Assembly (NCBI RefSeq): GCF_000313565.1
Contig: NZ_HE578923.1
Location: 1-64,000, forward strand
Direction: 5' to 3'
Source: Dielma fastidiosa
Lineage (GTDB): Bacteria > Bacillota_I > Bacilli_A > Erysipelotrichales > Erysipelotrichaceae
Length of the DNA: 64,000 nt
Under the pieces are notes generated by a model that worked only from the letters and a program-made list of their open reading frames with translations, was not told where the DNA came from and did not search any database. Of this stretch, positions 5,174-64,000 are shown piece after piece (the first letter of the stretch is position 1; each line of letters starts with the position of its first letter). The translations under genes were made by a program, and so were the position numbers.

Positions 5174-5202
5174 TTGACAAACGTTTCTGGTTGTTTTACA
5201 AT
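5174..5202 (+). promoter_or_regulatory. str operon promoter
   Basis: TTGACA (5174-5179), a 17-nt spacer and TACAAT (5197-5202) form a near-consensus sigma-A promoter about 100 nt before rpsL. Confidence 0.85.
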
Positions 5203-5220
5203 TACAAAGCTAGCGTGAAT

Positions 5221-5281
5221 ATGTTCCTGAAAGATGGAACATTAATTTATGCCGTAATATGACACACCCGGAAATGTGTGT
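5221..5281 (+). promoter_or_regulatory. Structured 5' leader of rpsL
   Basis: Two hairpins lie in the leader: atgttcc/ggaacat (5221-5242) and acacac/gtgtgt (5262-5281). The second ends about 10 nt before the AAAGGAGG of rpsL. They could serve autogenous control of the str operon. I do not recognise a catalogued motif. Confidence 0.4.
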
Positions 5282-5302
5282 TAGCACGAAAGGAGGACAA
5301 TC

Positions 5303-5725
5303 ATGCCTACAATTAATCAGTTAGTACGTAAAGGTCGTACAAATAAAGTATGGGTTTCTAAATCTCCTGCTTTAAATAGAGGTTACAACTCTTTGAAGCG
5401 TCGTCCTACCGATCTGAGTTCACCACAAAAACGTGGAGTATGTACTCGTGTTGGTACAATGACACCAAAGAAACCAAACTCAGCACTTCGTAAATATGCT
5501 CGTGTTCGTTTGTCAAACGGAATGGAAGTTACAGCTTACATCCCAGGAATCGGTCACAACCTACAGGAACATAGCGTTGTATTGATCCGTGGAGGACGTG
5601 TTAAGGATTTACCAGGTGTTCGTTACCATATCGTACGCGGAACATTAGACTGTGCTGGTGTTAATGCTCGTAATCAGTCTCGTTCTAAATATGGAACTAA
5701 GAAACCTAAAGCTGCTAAGAAATAG
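5303..5725 (+). CDS. rpsL: 30S ribosomal protein S12
   Basis: A 140-residue decoding-centre protein with the Gram-positive insertion before QKRGVCTRV. It carries the conserved [11 protein letters not shown] loop; Lys56 matches E. coli Lys43, so no classical streptomycin-resistance change is visible there. KDLPGVRYH is also present. AAAGGAGG lies 7 nt upstream of the ATG. First gene of rpsL-rpsG-fusA-tuf. Confidence 0.98.
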
Positions 5726-5752
5726 CATTAATCGTGAAAGGAGGAAGTAATA

Positions 5753-6223
5753 ATGCCTAGAAAAGGACATATAGCAAAACGTGATGTGTTAGTAGATCCG
5801 ATTTACAACTCTAAGTTGGTTACTCGTTTAATCAACAAAATCATGATTGATGGTAAAAGAGGGGTAGCTCAGACTATTCTGTATAACGCATTTGATATTA
5901 TTGAAGTAAAGACAGAACGTAAACCAATGGAAGTTTTCGAACAAGCATTGGAAAATGTTATGCCGTTATTAGAACTTAAAGTACGCCGTGTCGGAGGTGC
6001 TAACTATCAGGTTCCAGTTGAAGTTTCTCAGGAAAGAAAGTTAACATTAGGTTTACGCTGGATCGTTAACTATGCTCGCTTAAGAAATGAAAAGACAATG
6101 GAGCAAAGACTTGCTGCTGAGATTATCGATGCTGCAAATGGTACTGGCGCTTCTGTTAAGAAGAAAGACGATACTCATAAAATGGCTGAAGCAAATAAAG
6201 CATTTGCTCACTACCGTTGGTAA
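5753..6223 (+). CDS. rpsG: 30S ribosomal protein S7
   Basis: A 156-residue primary 16S rRNA-binding protein of the 30S head, full length and colinear with the family ([12 protein letters not shown] at the start, [15 protein letters not shown] at the end). It is 27 nt after rpsL with AAAGGAGG in the gap, so the two are co-transcribed. In other bacteria S7 represses the str operon. Confidence 0.98.
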
Positions 6224-6238
6224 GAGGGGACTTGAACT

Positions 6239-8329
6239 ATGCCACGTGAATATTCATTAGAAAATACTCGTAACATTGGTATCATGGCTCACATCGATGC
6301 TGGTAAGACGACTACAACTGAACGTATCCTGTATTACACAGGTGTTAACCATAAAATTGGTGAAACTCATGATGGAGCTTCAACAATGGACTGGATGGCT
6401 CAGGAACAAGAAAGAGGTATCACAATTACTTCTGCCGCTACTACAGCACACTGGGCTGGTACTAAATCTCAGTACCCTGATACTCGTGTAAACATCATCG
6501 ATACTCCGGGGCACGTTGACTTCACTGTTGAAGTTGAACGTTCACTGCGTGTACTTGACGGTGCGGTTACAGTATTAGATGCTAAGGCTGGTGTTGAACC
6601 TCAGACTGAAACAGTTTGGCGTCAAGCTTCAGCTTATGGTGTACCACGTATCGTATTCGTTAATAAGATGGATGCTACCGGTGCTGATTTTGATATGAGC
6701 TGCGCTACAATTATCAACCGTTTAGGTGCTAAGAGTGCTGCTGTTCAATTGCCAATCGGTGCTGAGAGTGATTTCAATGGTATCATTGATATCATCGAAA
6801 GAAAAGCTTATGATTTCGAAGGTGATTTCGGTGTAAATATTGTTGAAATCGATATCCCTGAGAATTTAAAAGAAAAAATGGAAGTTAAGCGTCAAGAATT
6901 AATTGAAGCAATTGCTGATTTTGATGATGACTTAATGATGATGGTTCTTGAAGGTGAAGAACCAACAATCGAACAAATAAAGGCTACGATTCGTAAGGCT
7001 GTATGTACTGGTGAATTCTTCCCAGTATTCTGCGGATCTGCTTATAAGAACAAGGGTGTTCAATTAATGCTGGACGGCGTTATTGAATATCTGCCTTCAC
7101 CGCTGGATATTCCGGCAATCATCGGTAAGACTGAAGATGGTGAAGATGTAGCTCGTCATGCTAGTGACAGTGAACCATTCTCTGCATTGGCATTTAAGGT
7201 TATGACTGACCCATTCATCGGTAAGCTGACTTATTTCCGTGTTTATTCTGGTACTACTAAATCAGGTACATATGTATTAAATGCTACAAAAGGCAAACGT
7301 GAGCGTTTTGCACGTATCGTTCAGATGCATGCTAATGCCCGTAAGGAAATTGATGAAGTTTATGCAGGTGATATTGCTGCTGCCGTAGGTTTAAAAGATA
7401 CGACAACGGGTGATACTCTGTGTGCTGAAGATTCTCATATCATTCTTGAATCAATGGTATTCCCTGAACCGGTTATTCAGATTTCTGTTGAACCTAAGTC
7501 AAAGGGCGATCAGGACAAGATGACATTAGCACTTCAGAAGCTTGCTGAAGAAGATCCTACTTTCAAAACATATACAGATCCTGAAACAGGACAAACGATT
7601 ATCGCCGGTGTTGGTGAACTTCACCTGGATATCATCGTTGACCGTATGCGCAGAGAATTTAAGGTAGAAGCTAATACTGGTGCTCCGCAGATTGCTTACC
7701 GTGAAACAATCCGTCAGGCTGCTGACTGTGAAGGTAAGTACATTAAGCAATCAGGTGGACGTGGTCAGTATGGTCACGTTTGGATCAAATTCGAACCGCT
7801 TGAAGAAGGTAAAGGCTTTGAATTCGTTGATGCTACTGTCGGCGGATCAGTACCTAGAGAATACATTAAATGTATCGGTGAAGGAACTGAAGCTGCATTA
7901 GCGAACGGTTTAGTTGCTGGTTATCAGGTAATCGATATCAAGGCTACGCTGTTTGATGGTTCTTACCATGATGTCGATTCAAGTGAAATGGCTTATAAGA
8001 TCGCTGCTTCAATGGCATTAAGAGAAGCTGCTAAGAAATGTAAGCCGGTAATTCTGGAACCAATCATGTTAGTTGAAGTTACAGCTCCAACTGAATACAT
8101 GGGTTCTGTAATGGGTGATATTTCATCACGCCGCGGACAGATCAATGATCAGGAAGAAAGAGGCAATGCCGTAATGGTTAAGGCTTATGTTCCACTGTCA
8201 GAGATGTTCGGTTATGTAACAGACTTGCGTTCATTCACTCAGGGTCGTGGTAATTACTCAATGAAATTTGACCACTACTCAGAAGTACCTAAGTCTATCG
8301 CAGAAAAAATCGTTAAAAACAACGCTTAA
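6239..8329 (+). CDS. fusA: Elongation factor G
   Basis: A 696-residue translocase GTPase. G motifs are visible: AHIDAGKTT (G1), RGITI after switch I, DTPGHVDF (G3), NKMD (G4) and GSA (G5). Domain IV/V sequence extends to the end ([17 protein letters not shown]). It is 15 nt after rpsG with a GAGGGG Shine-Dalgarno. Full-length housekeeping form, without signs of the shortened tetracycline-resistance paralogues. Confidence 0.98.
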
Positions 8330-57014: not shown

Positions 57015-58211
57015 ATGCGTGTTGTTCGTGAACAATATTTAAATCGATTAATAAATTTAAAGGATACTCCAGATATAAAAATCATAACAGGAATACGACG
57101 TTCAGGGAAGTCAGAACTAATGTTAGCTTATATGGATTATTTAAATAAGGATAATTCGGATATTAATATTATTTATATTGATTTTATGGATTTGTCCTTT
57201 GACATATTAAAAGAGTATCATGCGTTGCATGAATATGTTGAGAAACATTATAAAAAGGACTTAAAGAATTATCTATTCATTGATGAAGTGCAAATGTGTC
57301 CAAAGTTTGAATTAGCAGTGAATAGTTTATATTCAAAAAGAAAATATGACATATATATCACTGGATCAAATGCTTTTTTGCTTGGAAATGATTTAGCTAC
57401 TCTCTTTACAGGACGTTACATTGAATTACATGTATTTCCGTTTAGTTTTAAGGAATATTGTAAATATTACAATACTATTACAGATAAAAATCAACTATTT
57501 GATAATTATTTAATAAATGGTGGTTTATCTGGATCATATGTATATAAAACAGAAATTGATAGAAAAACTTATATCAAAGAAGTCTATGAAACAATTATTA
57601 ACCGTGACTTAGTTCAAAAATACAATCTACCTGATACTCAAGTATTGGGACACTTAAGTGAATTTTTGATGGATAATATTAGTAATTTAACATCTCCTAA
57701 CAAAATAACCTCGACTTTAAATGAAAATAAAATTAATACGAATCATGTGACAATTGGAAAATATATTAAATATTTATGTAATGCTTTTGTTTTCTATGAT
57801 ATTAAACGATATGATATACGAGGCAAGAAGTATTTAGATACATCGGATAAATATTATTTATGTGATACAGGAATTCGTTATTCTATATTAGGTACACGTA
57901 ACATTGATTATGGAAGAGCGTATGAAAATATGGTTTGCATTGAATTACTTCGCAGAGGATATGAAGTGTATATAGGAAAACTTTATGAAAAAGAGATAGA
58001 TTTTGTTGCGAGAAAAGGAAGTGAACAAATCTACATTCAGGTAAGTGATAATATTTCAAATAATGATACGTTTAAAAGAGAGTATGAGTCTCTTTTAAAG
58101 ATAAAAGATGCATATCCTAAAATGATATTGGCGAGAACACATCATCCCCAATATAGTTTTGAAGGAATAAAAATCATAGATATTGCTGACTGGTTATTAG
58201 AAGAATATTAA
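57015..58211 (+). CDS. AAA ATPase with DUF4143 domain
   Basis: 398 residues. Walker A GIRRSGKSELM, Walker B LFIDEVQMC and sensor ITGSNAFLL form an AAA_14 domain (about 1-170). A C-terminal DUF4143 domain (about 200-345) follows, with LCDTGIRYSILG and a KEIDFVAR motif like a degenerate PD-(D/E)XK core. The family is widespread on islands and of unclear function. Intact frame, AAAGTGAGG upstream. AT-rich like the rest of the island. Confidence 0.88.
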   Translation: MRVVREQYLNRLINLKDTPDIKIITGIRRSGKSELMLAYMDYLNKDNSDINIIYIDFMDLSFDILKEYHALHEYVEKHYKKDLKNYLFIDEVQMCPKFELAVNSLYSKRKYDIYITGSNAFLLGNDLATLFTGRYIELHVFPFSFKEYCKYYNTITDKNQLFDNYLINGGLSGSYVYKTEIDRKTYIKEVYETIINRDLVQKYNLPDTQVLGHLSEFLMDNISNLTSPNKITSTLNENKINTNHVTIGKYIKYLCNAFVFYDIKRYDIRGKKYLDTSDKYYLCDTGIRYSILGTRNIDYGRAYENMVCIELLRRGYEVYIGKLYEKEIDFVARKGSEQIYIQVSDNISNNDTFKREYESLLKIKDAYPKMILARTHHPQYSFEGIKIIDIADWLLEEY

Positions 58212-58410: not shown

Positions 58411-59955
58411 ATGATTTCATGGAAAAAGGTCTTGCAGTGTTTTGAAGAAGCTGATTATCATTTGCTTAACACAAGCAATCTTTATCAAGAATATTGGTAT
58501 TTGCGAACACTTTACAGAGGACTGAGAGCCGATGATGATACCGTATTGTATGTGATTCGATTAAGTGATGTCCCTTATGTATCCTTTGCTGAAAACATAG
58601 CTGTCATTGTGATCAATGACACTGAAGGACAACCTGATTCTGAGCAGCCCTCAATGAAGGGGAATGCTATATTGCTGAATGAACAGAAAGAACTTTCCAA
58701 AGGATTTCTTAATCTAGAGGCTGAATTTCATAATCAATTCAAGATTGGCTACATCATGCAGAAGCTATTGGACGTTGTTGCCTCTGATGGCGGTATCCAA
58801 TTGATGATTGAAATGATCTCTGATTTTTTTAAAGAACCGATTGCATTGCTTGATACAGCCTTTCGTTTCATTGCCCGTTCTGAAACCTATAAACCGATCT
58901 CCGGTAAATCAATCTTTTCTGATGATGCTCATTATGGTGAAGGCTACAACAAAAGCATGCTCGAATATTTTAAAAAGAATGGTTTATTAGAAGCCATGCT
59001 TCATGCCAACGCGCCCTTTTATTTCAAGGTAAAAGAAGAAGAGATTGCGTATTATATGCCCGTTATAGTAAACAAGATCAAGGTCGCTTATTTAATTATC
59101 TATTCCAATCAGCCGGAATATGATCGAAAAGATTACTATTTAGAATTTCTGCCACTCTTCTCACAAATGATCAGCATTGAGCTTGCTAAAAGAAACTTTT
59201 ATTTATTCAATAAGGGTACCTACTACAACTACATATTCTCTTTAATCTTATCGGATGCAAAGGTTGATGTTGAGGATGTGCGTATGCGGCTGAATATCTA
59301 TGGCTATGACTTGAGATATAATTTATATCTGCTTGAAGTTGATTCCAATATAGAAGAGATTAAAAGTCTGCATAAGGATAAAATTGCTGAATCGATTCGC
59401 AATACCTTCCGCAATAGCTTTTATGTATTTAAAGAGGATCGGGTGTTTTTCTTAATCAGCAGACATAAAGATGAGCTTCTTACCTTTGATGAAATGGAAG
59501 GCTGGAATATGAGTTTAGAAAGTCAAAATCTGATTGGCGCAATGACTGGACCATTCACTGATTTTGCTGATATTCACAAACATATGAAAGAGGTAAGAAT
59601 GGTATTGGATGCTGTTTTGCAGACAGATAATCAAAAAAATCTTTATACATTTGAAGAATATCAGACTAAGTCGATGATTTCATATTTAAAGCAGGAAGAT
59701 ATCAGTTTATTTTTATATAAGCCAGTGTTAGATTTAATCGCCTATGATGAAAGACATGGAACGGAGCTTGTGGAGACGTTAAAAGAATATTTGAAATATC
59801 CAAAGGAAATTGCATTGATCTGCGATGCTCTTTGTATTCATAAGAATACTTTATATAAACGGCTGGATCGCATTGATTCAATCATGAACTGTGATTATCG
59901 CAATGGTACAGAGATCATGAAAATCGAATTAACTTTAGAAATGCTTGGTAAATAA
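58411..59955 (+). CDS. PucR/CdaR-type transcriptional regulator
   Basis: 514 residues. The N-terminal part (1-120) is an unassigned domain, the centre (about 120-290) looks GAF-like, and the C-terminus (about 450-510) is the PucR HTH: ETLKEYLKYPKEIALICDAL, then HKNTLYKRLDRID. Such proteins activate catabolic genes in response to a small molecule. It lies 154 bp upstream of the thiolase cluster in the same direction, separated by a terminator, so it probably regulates that cluster. GGAGAAAG precedes the ATG. Confidence 0.85.
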   Translation: MISWKKVLQCFEEADYHLLNTSNLYQEYWYLRTLYRGLRADDDTVLYVIRLSDVPYVSFAENIAVIVINDTEGQPDSEQPSMKGNAILLNEQKELSKGFLNLEAEFHNQFKIGYIMQKLLDVVASDGGIQLMIEMISDFFKEPIALLDTAFRFIARSETYKPISGKSIFSDDAHYGEGYNKSMLEYFKKNGLLEAMLHANAPFYFKVKEEEIAYYMPVIVNKIKVAYLIIYSNQPEYDRKDYYLEFLPLFSQMISIELAKRNFYLFNKGTYYNYIFSLILSDAKVDVEDVRMRLNIYGYDLRYNLYLLEVDSNIEEIKSLHKDKIAESIRNTFRNSFYVFKEDRVFFLISRHKDELLTFDEMEGWNMSLESQNLIGAMTGPFTDFADIHKHMKEVRMVLDAVLQTDNQKNLYTFEEYQTKSMISYLKQEDISLFLYKPVLDLIAYDERHGTELVETLKEYLKYPKEIALICDALCIHKNTLYKRLDRIDSIMNCDYRNGTEIMKIELTLEMLGK

Positions 59956-59960
59956 GCAAG

Positions 59961-59983
59961 GTGTGCTGGCGCACACTTTTTGT
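59961..59983 (+). terminator. Rho-independent terminator
   Basis: gtgtgc (59961-59966) and gcacac (59971-59976) around TGGC, followed by T5. Confidence 0.75.
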
Positions 59984-60055
59984 TTGCCTATATTGGTTTA
60001 TGTTTCTATCCTGTCACATTGCAGCGATGCTGGAAAATAAATAGAATTAAATTAG

Positions 60056-60072
60056 AAATAGTTCCACTATTT
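60056..60072. promoter_or_regulatory. Candidate operator upstream of the thiolase cluster
   Basis: A perfect palindrome aaatagt-tcc-actattt ends 37 nt before the thiolase start. It is a plausible binding site for the upstream PucR-type regulator. Confidence 0.45.
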
Positions 60073-60109
60073 ACAAGCGAATTTTTTGGTTGAAAGCGAG
60101 GAAAAAAAC

Positions 60110-61900
60110 ATGAAACCTGGAAAAGTAGCAAACAGCACAACGATTAATCCGTATAGCCGCAGTGTATCAATCATTGGCGTAGGCTGTACACCTTTTATGT
60201 ACACAATGGATAATCCTGAGACAAATGGTTTGACCGAAGGTGAATTATTCGGCTACGCGGCATTAAAAGCGATGGAAGATGCAGGTGTAAGTCCAAAAGA
60301 AGTTGATTTTTATTTCCATGGCCAGGCCAGTCCGCTGAACGGCTCTGATTATATTACACCGAATATGCAGGTAGCTAATTGGTTTGGTATGAAGGGCAAG
60401 GGCTCAATTCACCATTCAGAAGCATGCTGCACTGGATATTTAGCTTTGGAACAAGCGGTTAATGCAGTTGCCAGCGGCAAGTATAATTGTGTATTATCCG
60501 GCTGTGTTGAATTTGCGGATGGTATCGCGGTAAAGGGAATGCCTGCCTATGTGCATGAAAAATTCACGATGGATAAATTATTAGAGACTACCGCTTGGAT
60601 TTATGATCGCGCTTATACCCGTCAGATGCTGTCAGGGCCTGTTATTTGCTTTGATGATCCGGCAGTAACTTATCAAAGACAGTATGGATTAACTGAGGAA
60701 GAAATGGACAGCGCAATGATCGGTATGGCATTGGCAAGCCGTAAAAACGCTTCAAAAAATCCATTAGCCGTGAATCAGGTACCTTATGAGGAAATGGCTA
60801 AGCAAATGGGAATGGATGTACAGACATTCATGAGATCTCAATTCAATCCTAAAATGGGCCATATGCTGCGTGTATCTGGCATGGAGCTAAAATGTGATGG
60901 TGCTGCAGCGGTTATCGTTGCTTCAACTGAATGGGCAGTCAAACATAATTTGCCGCATACACCGATTGAGGTGCTGGGTATCGGAAGTGCTGCCTGTGAA
61001 GGAAATACACCGCATCTTGAAATCCGCGGTACAGAAGAAGCAATCCGCCAAGTTTATGATTTGACGGATGTAAAGCCTGAAGAAATTGATTTGTTATATG
61101 CGAATGACTTTATCATTTCAAGTCAGCTGATTGCGGCGGAAGCCAGCGGTTATATGCCAAGAGGTGAAGGCTGGAAATATTTTGTTGAGGGCAGAACGGC
61201 CTACGATGGTGATAAACCAATCAACACCAATGGCGGACGTACCTCATTTGGACACGCTCATGCTGCCAGCGGTTTAGCCGATATTTATGAAGCTGTCCTG
61301 CAAATGCGCGGTTTAGCCGGTGAAAGACAAGTGAAGAAGCTCCCGAAGACGACATTGCTACGCGGCTTTGGCGGCGGTCAGAATCTGGCAGCCATCATTT
61401 TACGCACTGATGAGGCATTAAGAAAAGACGATCAGGCGGCTGTGGTAACAGATTCACCAATCAAATTAGAGACGGCGGTTAAGAAATATTATGAAGGTTT
61501 AGAAGCAGGAAAGATTTATGGCAGAAAATGCAAGGCCTGCGGACATATTGAATGGCCGCCACATTATGCTTGCAACGAATGCGGCTGTGATGAAATGGAA
61601 TGGGTTGAAATGTCAGGCAAAGGTACCATTGAGACTATTATTCTGCCGGCGATTCTTAATGCCAAACCTGAGAATGCGGATTTGATGCCATATGCATTAA
61701 CCAGCGTCACTATGGACGGATCATCTCAGAATGCTATCGTACAAGGGGTTACTAAAGAAAATGCCGAAGAATTATGGGCCTTAATGCCAGTACCGGTAAA
61801 AGCCAAAATTATTGAAAGAGGCCAGCCAGGCAGTACGTACAAAACCGTTATTTTTGAATTAGATCAAGAAGAATTAGCGAAGAAGAAAGCGCAGCAGTAA
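60110..61900 (+). CDS. Thiolase-like enzyme fused to a DUF35 Zn-ribbon/OB domain
   Basis: 596 residues. Thiolase fold about 15-440: active-site Cys in HSEACCTGYLALEQAVNA, and the His of FGHAHAASGLADIYEA. Linker, then a DUF35 domain (about 460-590): rubredoxin-like ribbon CKACGHIEW plus CNECGCDEMEW, followed by an OB fold (GKGTIETIILPA). In archaea and in phloroglucinol pathways the thiolase and DUF35 protein are separate subunits that channel CoA substrates. A C-C bond forming or thiolytic acyltransferase is likely; the substrate is unknown. ATG 60110 follows GCGAGGAAA. Next gene 10 nt away encodes a carrier protein. Confidence 0.78.
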   Translation: MKPGKVANSTTINPYSRSVSIIGVGCTPFMYTMDNPETNGLTEGELFGYAALKAMEDAGVSPKEVDFYFHGQASPLNGSDYITPNMQVANWFGMKGKGSIHHSEACCTGYLALEQAVNAVASGKYNCVLSGCVEFADGIAVKGMPAYVHEKFTMDKLLETTAWIYDRAYTRQMLSGPVICFDDPAVTYQRQYGLTEEEMDSAMIGMALASRKNASKNPLAVNQVPYEEMAKQMGMDVQTFMRSQFNPKMGHMLRVSGMELKCDGAAAVIVASTEWAVKHNLPHTPIEVLGIGSAACEGNTPHLEIRGTEEAIRQVYDLTDVKPEEIDLLYANDFIISSQLIAAEASGYMPRGEGWKYFVEGRTAYDGDKPINTNGGRTSFGHAHAASGLADIYEAVLQMRGLAGERQVKKLPKTTLLRGFGGGQNLAAIILRTDEALRKDDQAAVVTDSPIKLETAVKKYYEGLEAGKIYGRKCKACGHIEWPPHYACNECGCDEMEWVEMSGKGTIETIILPAILNAKPENADLMPYALTSVTMDGSSQNAIVQGVTKENAEELWALMPVPVKAKIIERGQPGSTYKTVIFELDQEELAKKKAQQ

Positions 61901-61910
61901 GGAGGATACT

Positions 61911-62150
61911 ATGACAAGAGAAGCGTTAGAAAATAAAGTGCTGGAGTGTGTAGCCGTTACCTTTCGTAAAACAATTGATGAGCTGTCAGTAAATACTGAT
62001 TTTAAAGCTGATTTAGGCGGTGCATCGATTTTAATGGTAGGCTTAGCTTCATTGATTGAAAATGAGTTAGATGTTTTAATTCCGCTGCCTACGGTTGCGA
62101 CTTGCAAGAGTGTTAAAGATTTAGTGGATAAGGTAGAAGCAGAACTGTAA
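61911..62150 (+). CDS. Acyl carrier protein-like protein
   Basis: 79 residues, all helical, ACP fold (VLECVAVTFRKTIDEL, DFKADLGGASILMVGLASLIENELDV). The phosphopantetheine Ser sits in GGASI rather than the usual GxDSL, with Ala before the Ser. It may be a specialised carrier for the thiolase product or, less likely, a non-modified homologue. AGGAGG lies upstream. Placed between thiolase and Ptb-like genes, it would hold an acyl group for transfer. Confidence 0.8.
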   Translation: MTREALENKVLECVAVTFRKTIDELSVNTDFKADLGGASILMVGLASLIENELDVLIPLPTVATCKSVKDLVDKVEAEL

Positions 62151-62200
62151 ATATTATGAAAGGTATCGTAAAGATGCCTTTCTTAAATTAAGGAGGCATT

Positions 62201-63211
62201 ATGTCAGTTTTAGAAATACTAAATAATAAAGCAAAATTAAATCCGCAGAAGGTAGCATTTCCTGAAGGAACAAATGAAAAAATTATGCAGGCAGCCTATG
62301 AATGCGGAAAAGAAGGTACAATCATTCCTGTGCTGGTAGGCAATCGTGAAGAGCTAAAGCAGCTGGCAATTGAAAGAGGCTATGATGCTTCGGTATTTAC
62401 CTTTGTCGATTTGCAGGATGAAGCTTATCAAAATGAACTCATTCAGAAATATGTTTCACTGCCCAATACTTTGTTGAAAGAGAAGGCACTTCACCGCCGA
62501 CTGAGTGATCCGTTAAACTTTGCCTTGGTGATGGAGGCCGTTGATGAGGCAGCGGCAACTTTTGCCGGTATTGATACTACAACCGGCGATGTGCTGTTTA
62601 GCGCTCAGCAAATTATTGGCATGAAGCCCGGAATATCAAATATTTCATCGATTGGATTATGTGACATACCGAATTATGAAGGCAGTGAGGGGTCATTGCT
62701 TGCTATTACTGACAGTGCTGTCGCAACCAATCCAACCGCTGAAGAATTAGCTAATATTGCTATTTCAGCGTGTGATACAATGGAAGCACTCTTGGATTGG
62801 GAACCGCGGTGTGCGATGATTTCTTATTCAACATTAGGTTCAGGACAAGGTGAATTGGTGGATAAGGTAGCTCAGGCGGTGAAGATTGCCAATGAAAAGC
62901 GGCCTGATTTAGCCATCGACGGCGAGTTTCAGCTCGATGCTGCTATAAAGCCGGAAGTAGCAGCTAAGAAAGTAAAAAAGGCATCAAAGGTTGCAGGCAG
63001 GGCAAACATTCTTGTTTGGAGCAATTTAGATGTCGGCAATGTTGCGGTAAAATTAATTCAAACATTTGGCAAAGCCAATGCTTATGGGCCGATGCTGCAG
63101 GGCTTTAATAAGGTTGTCTGTGACTGTTCGCGCGGTGCACCAGTTGCTGAAATCAAAGGCAATATCGTGATTTCTGCATTGAGAGCGGCGGGGGCTAAAC
63201 ATCATGGCTAA
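62201..63211 (+). CDS. Phosphate acetyl/butyryltransferase family enzyme
   Basis: 336 residues of the PTA_PTB family: acyl-CoA (or acyl-ACP) + Pi gives acyl phosphate. Family segments VAFPEGTNEKIMQAA, SYSTLGSGQG and the Gly-rich NILVWSNLDVGNVAVKLIQ end region are present. It pairs with the kinase gene that overlaps its stop. The choice between acetyl and butyryl substrate cannot be made by eye, but the partner kinase suggests butyrate or a branched acid. AAGGAGG upstream of the ATG. Confidence 0.87.
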   Translation: MSVLEILNNKAKLNPQKVAFPEGTNEKIMQAAYECGKEGTIIPVLVGNREELKQLAIERGYDASVFTFVDLQDEAYQNELIQKYVSLPNTLLKEKALHRRLSDPLNFALVMEAVDEAAATFAGIDTTTGDVLFSAQQIIGMKPGISNISSIGLCDIPNYEGSEGSLLAITDSAVATNPTAEELANIAISACDTMEALLDWEPRCAMISYSTLGSGQGELVDKVAQAVKIANEKRPDLAIDGEFQLDAAIKPEVAAKKVKKASKVAGRANILVWSNLDVGNVAVKLIQTFGKANAYGPMLQGFNKVVCDCSRGAPVAEIKGNIVISALRAAGAKHHG

Positions 63212-64000
63212 GTATCGGGTTCTAACGATCAATCCTGGATCGACTTCTACTAAAGTGGCCGTATTTGATGATGAAACAGAAGTCTTTTCAAAAAATATTG
63301 TTCATGCTGCAGAAGATTTGGCGGCATTTGCACAGCTGACGCAGCAGAAACCATATCGGGCGGCGTTGATTTTAGAAGCGCTTCAAGAGAATGGCATTGA
63401 TTTGTCATCATTATCAGCGGTGGTCGGCCGCGGCGGCGGTTTGTTAGCGGTTGAAGGCGGTGTTTATATCATTGATGATCTTTTGCTGTCGCATGCTGAA
63501 AAGGGCGCTAATGGGGTTGTTCATCCAGCCCAATTGGGTTCCTTATTAGCGAATGATATCGCAAAGGAATATGGCATTCCGGCATATGTGGTTAATCCAC
63601 CGGATACCGATGAGCTGGAAGCTGTCGCAAGACTTACCGGGATTAAGGGTGTTTACCGCAATGTTCATTTACATGCGTTAAATTTGAAAGAAACAGCGAT
63701 CCGGCATGCTGCTGCCATGCATAAAAAGGTTGAAGAATGCAATTTTATTGTATGCCATATTGGCGGCGGTGTTTCAGTTTCAGCTCATCGTCATGGGAAA
63801 ATGATCGATGGCAATGATATTGTCGGCGGAGAAGGACCGATGGCACCGACACGCTGCGGGAATGTTCCTGCATCAGAAATCATCGATCTGTGTTTTTCAG
63901 GCATCAGCCAAAAAGAAGCCAAAGCACTTTGTACGAAAACTGGCGGGTTCGTAAGCCATCTTAATACAAGTGATGCCAGAGAGGTAGTCAGACTGGCCGA
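63204..64000 (+). CDS. buk: Butyrate kinase family protein (3' end beyond window)
   Basis: A 265-residue N-terminal part; reading continues past the window edge. MAKYRVLTINPGSTSTKVAVF is the ASKHA phosphate-binding start. AVVGRGGGLLAVEGGVY, VHPAQLGSLLANDIA and CHIGGGVSVSAHRHGKMID are typical of butyrate and branched-chain acid kinases. It turns acyl phosphate + ADP into acid + ATP. ATG 63204 overlaps the stop of the Ptb-like gene by 8 nt, so the two are translated together. Final gene of the visible thiolase-ACP-Ptb-Buk cluster. Confidence 0.88.
   Translation, partial: MAKYRVLTINPGSTSTKVAVFDDETEVFSKNIVHAAEDLAAFAQLTQQKPYRAALILEALQENGIDLSSLSAVVGRGGGLLAVEGGVYIIDDLLLSHAEKGANGVVHPAQLGSLLANDIAKEYGIPAYVVNPPDTDELEAVARLTGIKGVYRNVHLHALNLKETAIRHAAAMHKKVEECNFIVCHIGGGVSVSAHRHGKMIDGNDIVGGEGPMAPTRCGNVPASEIIDLCFSGISQKEAKALCTKTGGFVSHLNTSDAREVVRLA

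What the first reader, a model, noticed from the sequence alone, without database searches (positions are those of the whole stretch)
58411..64000. Thiolase-DUF35 fusion with its own ACP, phosphate acyltransferase and acid kinase: candidate new ATP-yielding acyl pathway
Order: PucR-type regulator, thiolase-DUF35 fusion, ACP-like protein with GGASI at the modification site, Ptb-like enzyme and Buk-like kinase. Known: Ptb/Buk make ATP from acyl-CoA. Unusual: a dedicated carrier protein and a one-piece thiolase-DUF35. Inferred: an acyl product of C-C cleavage is passed on the carrier, or on CoA, to phosphate and then ADP. A perfect palindrome before the thiolase fits regulator control. The cluster may continue beyond 64000.
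Basis: partly seen in the sequence, partly recalled or inferred. Interest (0 to 1): 0.68.

Follow-up and report, generated by a model that had tools for sequence, protein, structure and literature searches.

The report
Carrier-protein version of acyl-phosphate energy metabolism
A conserved set of genes in gut and rumen anaerobes seems to cut a carbon-carbon bond, catch the released acyl piece on its own small carrier protein instead of coenzyme A, and turn it into ATP; the enzymes are recognisable, but the arrangement is undescribed as far as I could find and the substrate is unknown.

Summary
The operon runs thiolase-DUF35, ACP, Pta, Buk and, just past the window, an esterase. The "Ptb-like" enzyme is Pta-like; the "palindrome" is most likely pucR's terminator. 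A second version elsewhere in the same genome has a separate thiolase, a DUF35-ACP fusion, Pta, Buk, transporters and a phosphopantetheinyl transferase.

One scan found 172 relatives; the best 80 are almost all Clostridia or Erysipelotrichia, mostly from gut and rumen. Of 45 loci with 4 kb on both sides, 33 carry DUF35, ACP, Pta and Buk together.

Evidence that the ACP is the working carrier: its serine is invariant (81/81); DUF35-ACP fusions exist; the window's genome lacks fatty-acid-synthesis ketosynthases, and its only three carrier domains and only transferase all belong to these clusters; all 67 cassette Ptas keep the catalytic Ser/Arg but lack two CoA-affinity arginines that the genome's ordinary Pta keeps. 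The last point is only suggestive: the genome's Ptb-like enzyme also lacks one.

Best reading: retro-Claisen cleavage onto ACP, then acyl phosphate, then ATP. Direction, carrier identity and substrate are inferred. No paper describing the set was found.

The parts
58411..59955 (+). PucR-type transcriptional regulator, probable regulator of the operon (by position)
   Evidence: PF13556 HTH_30 E 3.4e-12; PucR-like genes in the flanks of 22 of 87 loci. Control of the operon is inferred.
59958..59979 (+).
   Evidence: 9-pair stem with one G-T, loop of 4, T tract, 3 bases after the pucR stop
60110..61900 (+). Thiolase-DUF35 fusion: thiolase residues about 13-433, DUF35 about 453-594. Cys106 nucleophile, His382, invariant His70; zinc Cys 474/477/488/491
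   Evidence: Pfam, residue conservation in 88 thiolases and 89 DUF35 domains, AlphaFold pLDDT 86.5, Foldseek
61911..62150 (+). Acyl carrier protein, 79 aa, phosphopantetheine site Ser39 in DLGGASI
   Evidence: PF00550 E 5.7e-10; Ser invariant in 81 of 81 carrier domains
62201..63211 (+). Pta-like phosphate acyltransferase, proposed acyl-ACP + Pi -> acyl phosphate
   Evidence: PF01515 E 4e-84; catalytic Ser/Arg kept, Arg87/Arg133 equivalents absent in 67 of 67 cassette members
63204..64000 (+). Buk-like acyl kinase, continues to genome C1:64313; followed by an Esterase-family gene C1:64318-65052
   Evidence: NF002834 305.6 bits against a cut-off of 222 for the truncated part; full gene and next gene; best solved relative is T. 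maritima-type butyrate kinase 2, E 1e-95

Best explanation
This is a catabolic, carrier-protein-dependent substrate-level phosphorylation module. The thiolase-DUF35 cleaves a carbon-carbon bond next to a carbonyl (retro-Claisen, probably of a 1,3-dicarbonyl or an equivalent that need not carry CoA). The acyl half goes to the catalytic Cys and then to the phosphopantetheine thiol of the cluster's own ACP. The Pta-like enzyme exchanges ACP for phosphate, and the Buk-like kinase makes ATP plus a free carboxylate. Shown here: the genes, their domains, their conserved association, the invariant ACP serine, the DUF35-ACP fusions, the nearby phosphopantetheinyl transferases, and the absence of fatty-acid-synthesis ketosynthases in this genome. 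Inferred: direction, ACP rather than CoA as acyl carrier, and the type of substrate. In many Lachnospiraceae a probably cytosolic FAD enzyme and an NADH:Fe-S unit lie beside the module and may first reduce a C=C or ring bond (inference).
For: Conserved set in 33 of 45 well-flanked loci. DUF35-ACP fusions in four genomes. ACP Ser invariant 81/81. In this genome all three carrier domains and the only PPTase are in the two clusters and no FAS ketosynthase exists. Cassette Ptas keep Ser309/Arg310 and lack Arg87/Arg133 in 67/67, while the same genome's ordinary Pta keeps all four (roles of these residues in PMC6461089). Thiolase Cys106 and His382 invariant 88/88; fold like DUF35-partnered thiolases, among them the CoA-independent C-acyltransferase PhlACB. 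PucR regulators, MFS importer families and NADH-linked flavoenzymes beside the module fit catabolism.
Against: No biochemical data. The genome's Ptb-like enzyme, of a CoA-using family, also lacks Arg133, so that loss does not prove ACP use. A basal clade of thiolase-DUF35 genes has no ACP, Pta or Buk detected beside it. Kinase and acyltransferase reactions are reversible, so direction is not settled by gene content.
Confidence: 0.58

Rival explanations
1. Same catabolic direction, but CoA carries the acyl group: the thiolase is an ordinary thiolytic enzyme, Pta and Buk work on acyl-CoA, and the ACP is an accessory, for example a structural or channelling partner of DUF35.
For: All solved DUF35-thiolase relatives except the C-acyltransferases use CoA thioesters (titles and general knowledge; PMC6392133). 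Pta/Buk families normally use CoA. The basal clade has no ACP nearby. Loss of Arg133 also occurs in the genome's Ptb-like enzyme.
Against: ACP Ser invariant, PPTase genes linked, DUF35-ACP fusions, and a whole carrier apparatus kept in a genome without FAS II; Arg87/Arg133 absent in every cassette Pta.
Confidence: 0.2
2. The module runs backwards as biosynthesis: Buk and Pta activate a free carboxylic acid to acyl-ACP at the cost of ATP, and the thiolase-DUF35 transfers the acyl group to carbon of an acceptor, as PhlACB and MucABC do in making acylated natural products.
For: The nearest CoA-independent relatives of this architecture are biosynthetic C-acyltransferases. An ACP and a Sfp-type PPTase are usual in biosynthesis (general knowledge).
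Against: Neighbours are PucR regulators, OFA/other MFS or ABC transporters and NADH-linked reductases rather than tailoring or export genes; no HMGCS-like third subunit in the clusters; wide presence as a core module beside different partners.
Confidence: 0.17
3. The ACP is the general fatty-acid-synthesis or lipid ACP that happens to sit in the operon.
For: It is an ACP-family protein; PlsX-type enzymes elsewhere exchange acyl-ACP and acyl phosphate (general knowledge).
Against: No FAS II ketosynthase in this genome; score far below FAS-ACP cut-offs (26.8 against 70.45 bits for TIGR00517); the same ACP type sits beside the thiolase across Clostridia and is fused to DUF35 in four genomes.
Confidence: 0.03

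Closest known systems
Multicomponent C-acyltransferases PhlACB (PpATase, 5M3K/5MG5) and MucABC (9VBO)
   Same: Thiolase-fold subunit with nucleophilic Cys and a zinc-ribbon/OB DUF35 partner; PpATase moves acyl groups to and from carbon without CoA (PMC6392133; fold match).
   Different: They have an HMGCS-like third subunit and no dedicated ACP, Pta or Buk that I know of; about 20% identity; known roles are biosynthetic.
Thiolase-DUF35 catabolic pairs: BbsAB benzoylsuccinyl-CoA thiolase, Ltp2-ChsH2 and Sal-Shy aldolases
   Same: Two-component thiolase plus DUF35 that breaks C-C bonds.
   Different: Act on CoA thioesters; no ACP; 19-24% identity; the HDxF-motif His is Asn here.
Pta-Ack and Ptb-Buk substrate-level phosphorylation
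   Same: Same Pta and Buk families; Ser309, Arg310 and Lys283 (M. thermophila numbering) kept.
   Different: CoA-affinity arginines 87 and 133 absent in all cassette Ptas; dedicated ACP; Pta type paired with Buk type.
PlsX acyl-ACP:phosphate acyltransferase (general knowledge, not tested here)
   Same: Precedent for acyl-ACP <-> acyl phosphate exchange.
   Different: PlsX serves phospholipid synthesis and is a different family.
Anaerobic phloroglucinol pathway of Clostridium scatologenes (PMC10470551)
   Same: Reduction, then retro-Claisen opening, ending in acetate/butyrate and ATP through acyl phosphates.
   Different: Uses a cyclohydrolase, triacetate acetoacetate-lyase and CoA; the paper text does not mention an acyl carrier protein.

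Membership tests
Multicomponent C-acyltransferase (PhlACB/MucABC) | Thiolase-fold subunit with Cys nucleophile and His | tested here: met
   Cys106 and His382 invariant 88/88; fold match to 5M3K and 9VBO
Multicomponent C-acyltransferase (PhlACB/MucABC) | DUF35 subunit with Cys4 zinc ribbon | tested here: met
   Four Cys conserved in 88-89 of 89; zf-ChsH2 hit
Multicomponent C-acyltransferase (PhlACB/MucABC) | HMGCS-like third subunit in the operon | tested here: not met
   No such gene in the window operon or among the recurrent families of the 80 loci; PF00109 found nothing but the thiolase in the genome. A dedicated HMGCS profile was not run.
CoA-dependent SCP2/degradative thiolase | Second catalytic Cys (in CxG or HDCF) for acid/base catalysis | tested here: not met
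   Both motifs replaced by G[AGS]QN and NDF, invariant or nearly so
Fatty-acid-synthesis ACP | FAS-ACP curated score and co-occurring FAS II ketosynthase | tested here: not met
   26.8 bits against 70.45 for TIGR00517; no ketosynthase in the genome
Phosphopantetheine carrier proteins | Conserved modification serine and PP-binding fold family | tested here: met
   PF00550 above cut-off, Ser 81/81
Phosphopantetheine carrier proteins | Actually phosphopantetheinylated | not testable with these tools
   Needs mass spectrometry; only indirect signs
Phosphate acetyltransferase (Pta) | Catalytic Ser309 and Arg310 | tested here: met
   67 of 67
Phosphate acetyltransferase (Pta) | CoA-affinity residues Arg87 and Arg133 and curated family score | tested here: not met
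   Absent in 67 of 67; TIGR00651 255.4 bits against 311.2
Phosphate butyryltransferase (Ptb) | Curated family score | tested here: not met
   64.2 bits against 410.5 (TIGR02706)
Butyrate kinase family (Buk) | Curated butyrate kinase subfamily score | tested here: met
   NF002834 305.6 bits against 222 even for the truncated window part. Acid specificity was not tested.

The most novel reading that the evidence does not exclude
Gut and rumen anaerobes run a fermentation branch whose energy-conserving thioester is an acyl-ACP, not acyl-CoA: a thiolase-DUF35 thiolyses a non-CoA 1,3-diketone (for example from a flavoenzyme-reduced ring) directly onto an ACP, and a Pta specialised for acyl-ACP plus Buk make ATP. 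In some lineages a CocE-type serine hydrolase with its own ACP feeds a similar Pta/Buk pair.
Probability: 0.4. Interest if true: 0.88.

Novelty: new variant of a known kind. Interest (0 to 1): 0.7.

Why it matters
Substrate-level phosphorylation through acyl phosphates is textbook CoA chemistry. A widespread cluster that replaces CoA with a dedicated carrier protein would be a new way of conserving energy, and would give acyl carrier proteins a catabolic role outside fatty-acid, polyketide and peptide synthesis. It is common in rumen and intestinal Clostridia, so its substrate is probably an abundant dietary or host compound whose breakdown is not yet explained. The window's genome is a good test case: its carrier domains and its only phosphopantetheinyl transferase all belong to these clusters.

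Tried and rejected
Fatty-acid-synthesis ACP: rejected (no ketosynthase in the genome, low FAS-ACP scores). Ptb assignment: rejected. Palindrome as PucR operator: not supported, it looks like a terminator. One-piece thiolase-DUF35 as the defining novelty: rejected; most relatives have two genes, and the tree puts the fused form in two clades (L006+L040, and L055/L056/L067/L085/L089) separated by well-supported unfused lineages. Known phloroglucinol pathway: compared in text, not the same enzymes. Literature for a described thiolase/ACP/Pta/Buk cluster: searches found none (open-licence papers only). Loss of Arg87/Arg133 as proof of ACP use: weakened to suggestive after the control with the genome's own Ptb-like enzyme, which also lacks Arg133. 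A direct residue match to PhlC (His56 against the invariant His70 here) could not be checked because the PhlC alignment was not printed. The class and phylum surveys (4 of 395 and 4 of 392 genomes at E 1e-80) returned only genomes of the window's own order and gave no count for Clostridia.
Full report
WHAT IS THERE. The window ends inside an operon of five genes on the + strand: thiolase-DUF35 (60110-61900), ACP (61911-62150), Pta-family enzyme (62201-63211), Buk-family kinase (63204 to genome position C1:64313) and an Esterase-family protein (C1:64318-65052). A PucR-type regulator precedes it (58411-59955). After the esterase come opposite-strand genes that look unrelated (sensor kinase, response regulator, methionine sulfoxide reductase, by reading the ORFs), so the cluster does not continue into a known pathway. 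The phosphate acyltransferase is Pta-like, not Ptb-like.

A SECOND COPY IN THE SAME GENOME. On contig C2 lies another version, with the thiolase as a separate 429-aa protein, a 233-aa DUF35-ACP fusion, Pta, Buk, an OFA-type and two further MFS-type transporters, a CocE/PepX-type hydrolase, a PucR-type regulator, a further Buk with a further ACP, and an Sfp-type phosphopantetheinyl transferase.

CONSERVATION. One scan of genome contigs (84,980 species) with a nine-sequence alignment found 172 relatives. The 80 best are almost all Clostridia and Erysipelotrichia, most of them from gut or rumen. Of the 45 of these with at least 4 kb on both sides, 42 have DUF35, 42 ACP, 40 Pta, 38 Buk, and 33 have all four beside the thiolase (lower bounds, since ORF calling was simple).

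FUSIONS. DUF35-ACP fusions occur in four genomes (this genome, G067, G056, G018), and one locus (L093) has an ACP fused to a CocE-type hydrolase. Thiolase-DUF35 fusions occur in seven loci; on the tree they form two clades separated by well-supported unfused lineages, so fusion probably happened at least twice. Fusion of ACP to DUF35 is the strongest sign that the carrier works at the thiolase-DUF35 site.

THE CARRIER. The serine that would carry phosphopantetheine is invariant in 81 of 81 carrier domains; the residue before it is Ala in 68, where FAS ACPs have Asp (the DSL motif is general knowledge). Sfp- or AcpS-type transferases lie in the flanks of 19 of 87 loci. In the window's genome (98.5% complete) PF00550 finds three carrier domains, all in these clusters; PF01648 finds one transferase, in the second cluster; PF00109 finds no ketosynthase apart from a weak hit to the second thiolase. 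The four other cassette-bearing genomes of the family also have no strong ketosynthase hit while keeping 2-5 carrier domains; I did not locate every one of those domains, so exclusivity is claimed only for the window's genome.

THE PHOSPHATE ACYLTRANSFERASE. In M. thermophila Pta, replacement of Ser309 and Arg310 affects kcat, while Arg87 and Arg133 mainly affect Km (PMC6461089). All 67 cassette Ptas keep Ser309 and Arg310 and none has Arg87 or Arg133 (61 have Leu at 133). The same genome's ordinary Pta keeps all four. The genome's Ptb-like enzyme also lacks Arg133, so this supports, but does not prove, a carrier other than CoA.

THE THIOLASE. The AlphaFold model (pLDDT 86.5, pTM 0.90) matches SCP2-type thiolases and the thiolase subunits of DUF35 complexes: archaeal HMGCS complex, BbsAB, Ltp2-ChsH2, Sal-Shy, PhlACB and MucABC. 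Identity in the structural alignments to the listed solved proteins is 19-28%. Cys106 and His382 are invariant in 88 of 88; neither the CxG nor the HDCF acid/base cysteine is present; NDF and G[AGS]QN stand in their places, and His70 is invariant. PhlC also acts without CoA (PMC6392133). A Cys/His thiolase without the second Cys fits cleavage of an activated 1,3-dicarbonyl better than ordinary beta-oxidation (inference).

PARTNERS. In many Lachnospiraceae and Oscillospiraceae loci the cassette sits with an FMN_red protein, an FAD_binding_2 flavoprotein (24 loci; best curated neighbour vinyl phenol reductase, below its cut-off; no signal peptide seen by eye), a NuoG/GltD-like NADH oxidoreductase (29 loci), an Fe-S protein, DUF1097, an OFA transporter and sometimes an MBL hydrolase. 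Other loci have FMN_red proteins with peptide-type ABC or sugar-type transporters instead (transporter types by reading the ORFs). The core thus looks like a module that is plugged into different upstream reactions. In the window's own locus only the esterase accompanies the core.

MECHANISM. Proposed order: (optional reduction or hydrolysis) -> thiolase Cys attacks a ketone carbonyl, the C-C bond breaks, acyl-Cys -> acyl moves to the phosphopantetheine of ACP, positioned by DUF35 -> Pta gives acyl phosphate -> Buk gives ATP and carboxylate. Every arrow is inference from families; the genes, residues and associations are tool results.

RIVALS. CoA as the true carrier (0.20), a biosynthetic direction (0.17) and a stray FAS ACP (0.03) are set out in the Rival explanations section. 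A basal clade of thiolase-DUF35 genes has no ACP, Pta or Buk detected nearby, so the ancestral function may have been CoA- or otherwise-based.

NOVELTY. Each protein family is known. I found no paper describing the set (open-licence papers only). I rate it a new variant of acyl-phosphate ATP formation, with a 0.4 chance that it is truly an acyl-ACP-based energy pathway.

Noticed in passing
L007 11414-12801 and 15081-16901 (own genome C2); L028, L034, L093: A second carrier type (ACP3, motif xCKS) goes with Buk or Pta-Buk and a CocE/PepX-type serine hydrolase, and in L093 ACP and CocE are one 717-aa protein: possibly a hydrolase that hands its acyl group to a carrier instead of water.
   Followed up: partly
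own genome, whole: No FAS II ketosynthase, only three carrier domains and one PPTase in a 98.5% complete genome.
   Followed up: yes
L009 4496-8910 (own genome C4): A Ptb-like/Buk pair lies beside what look like UbiX- and UbiD-type genes, suggesting another acid or aromatic pathway.
   Followed up: no
L105 (Eubacterium plexicaudatum ASF492): The NuoG-like, Buk and other genes of the cassette are split into several frames, by decay or sequencing error.
   Followed up: no
L039 about 5182-7182 and L068 about 20111: A very divergent second thiolase with its own ACP (motif GVSS/GTSS) upstream: a possible separate subfamily.
   Followed up: no
L043, L045, L052, L071, L075, L091, L095 (Parasporobacterium and relatives): Basal thiolase-DUF35 clade with no ACP, Pta or Buk found beside it.
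   Followed up: partly
window 57015-58211: AAA_14/DUF4143 ATPase in an AT-rich stretch just before the operon, probably a recent insertion.
   Followed up: no
conserved cassette neighbourhoods, e.g. L110 14542-15045: A DUF1097 membrane protein of unknown function recurs beside the cassette (26 of 87 loci): possibly a transporter or channel for substrate or product.
   Followed up: no
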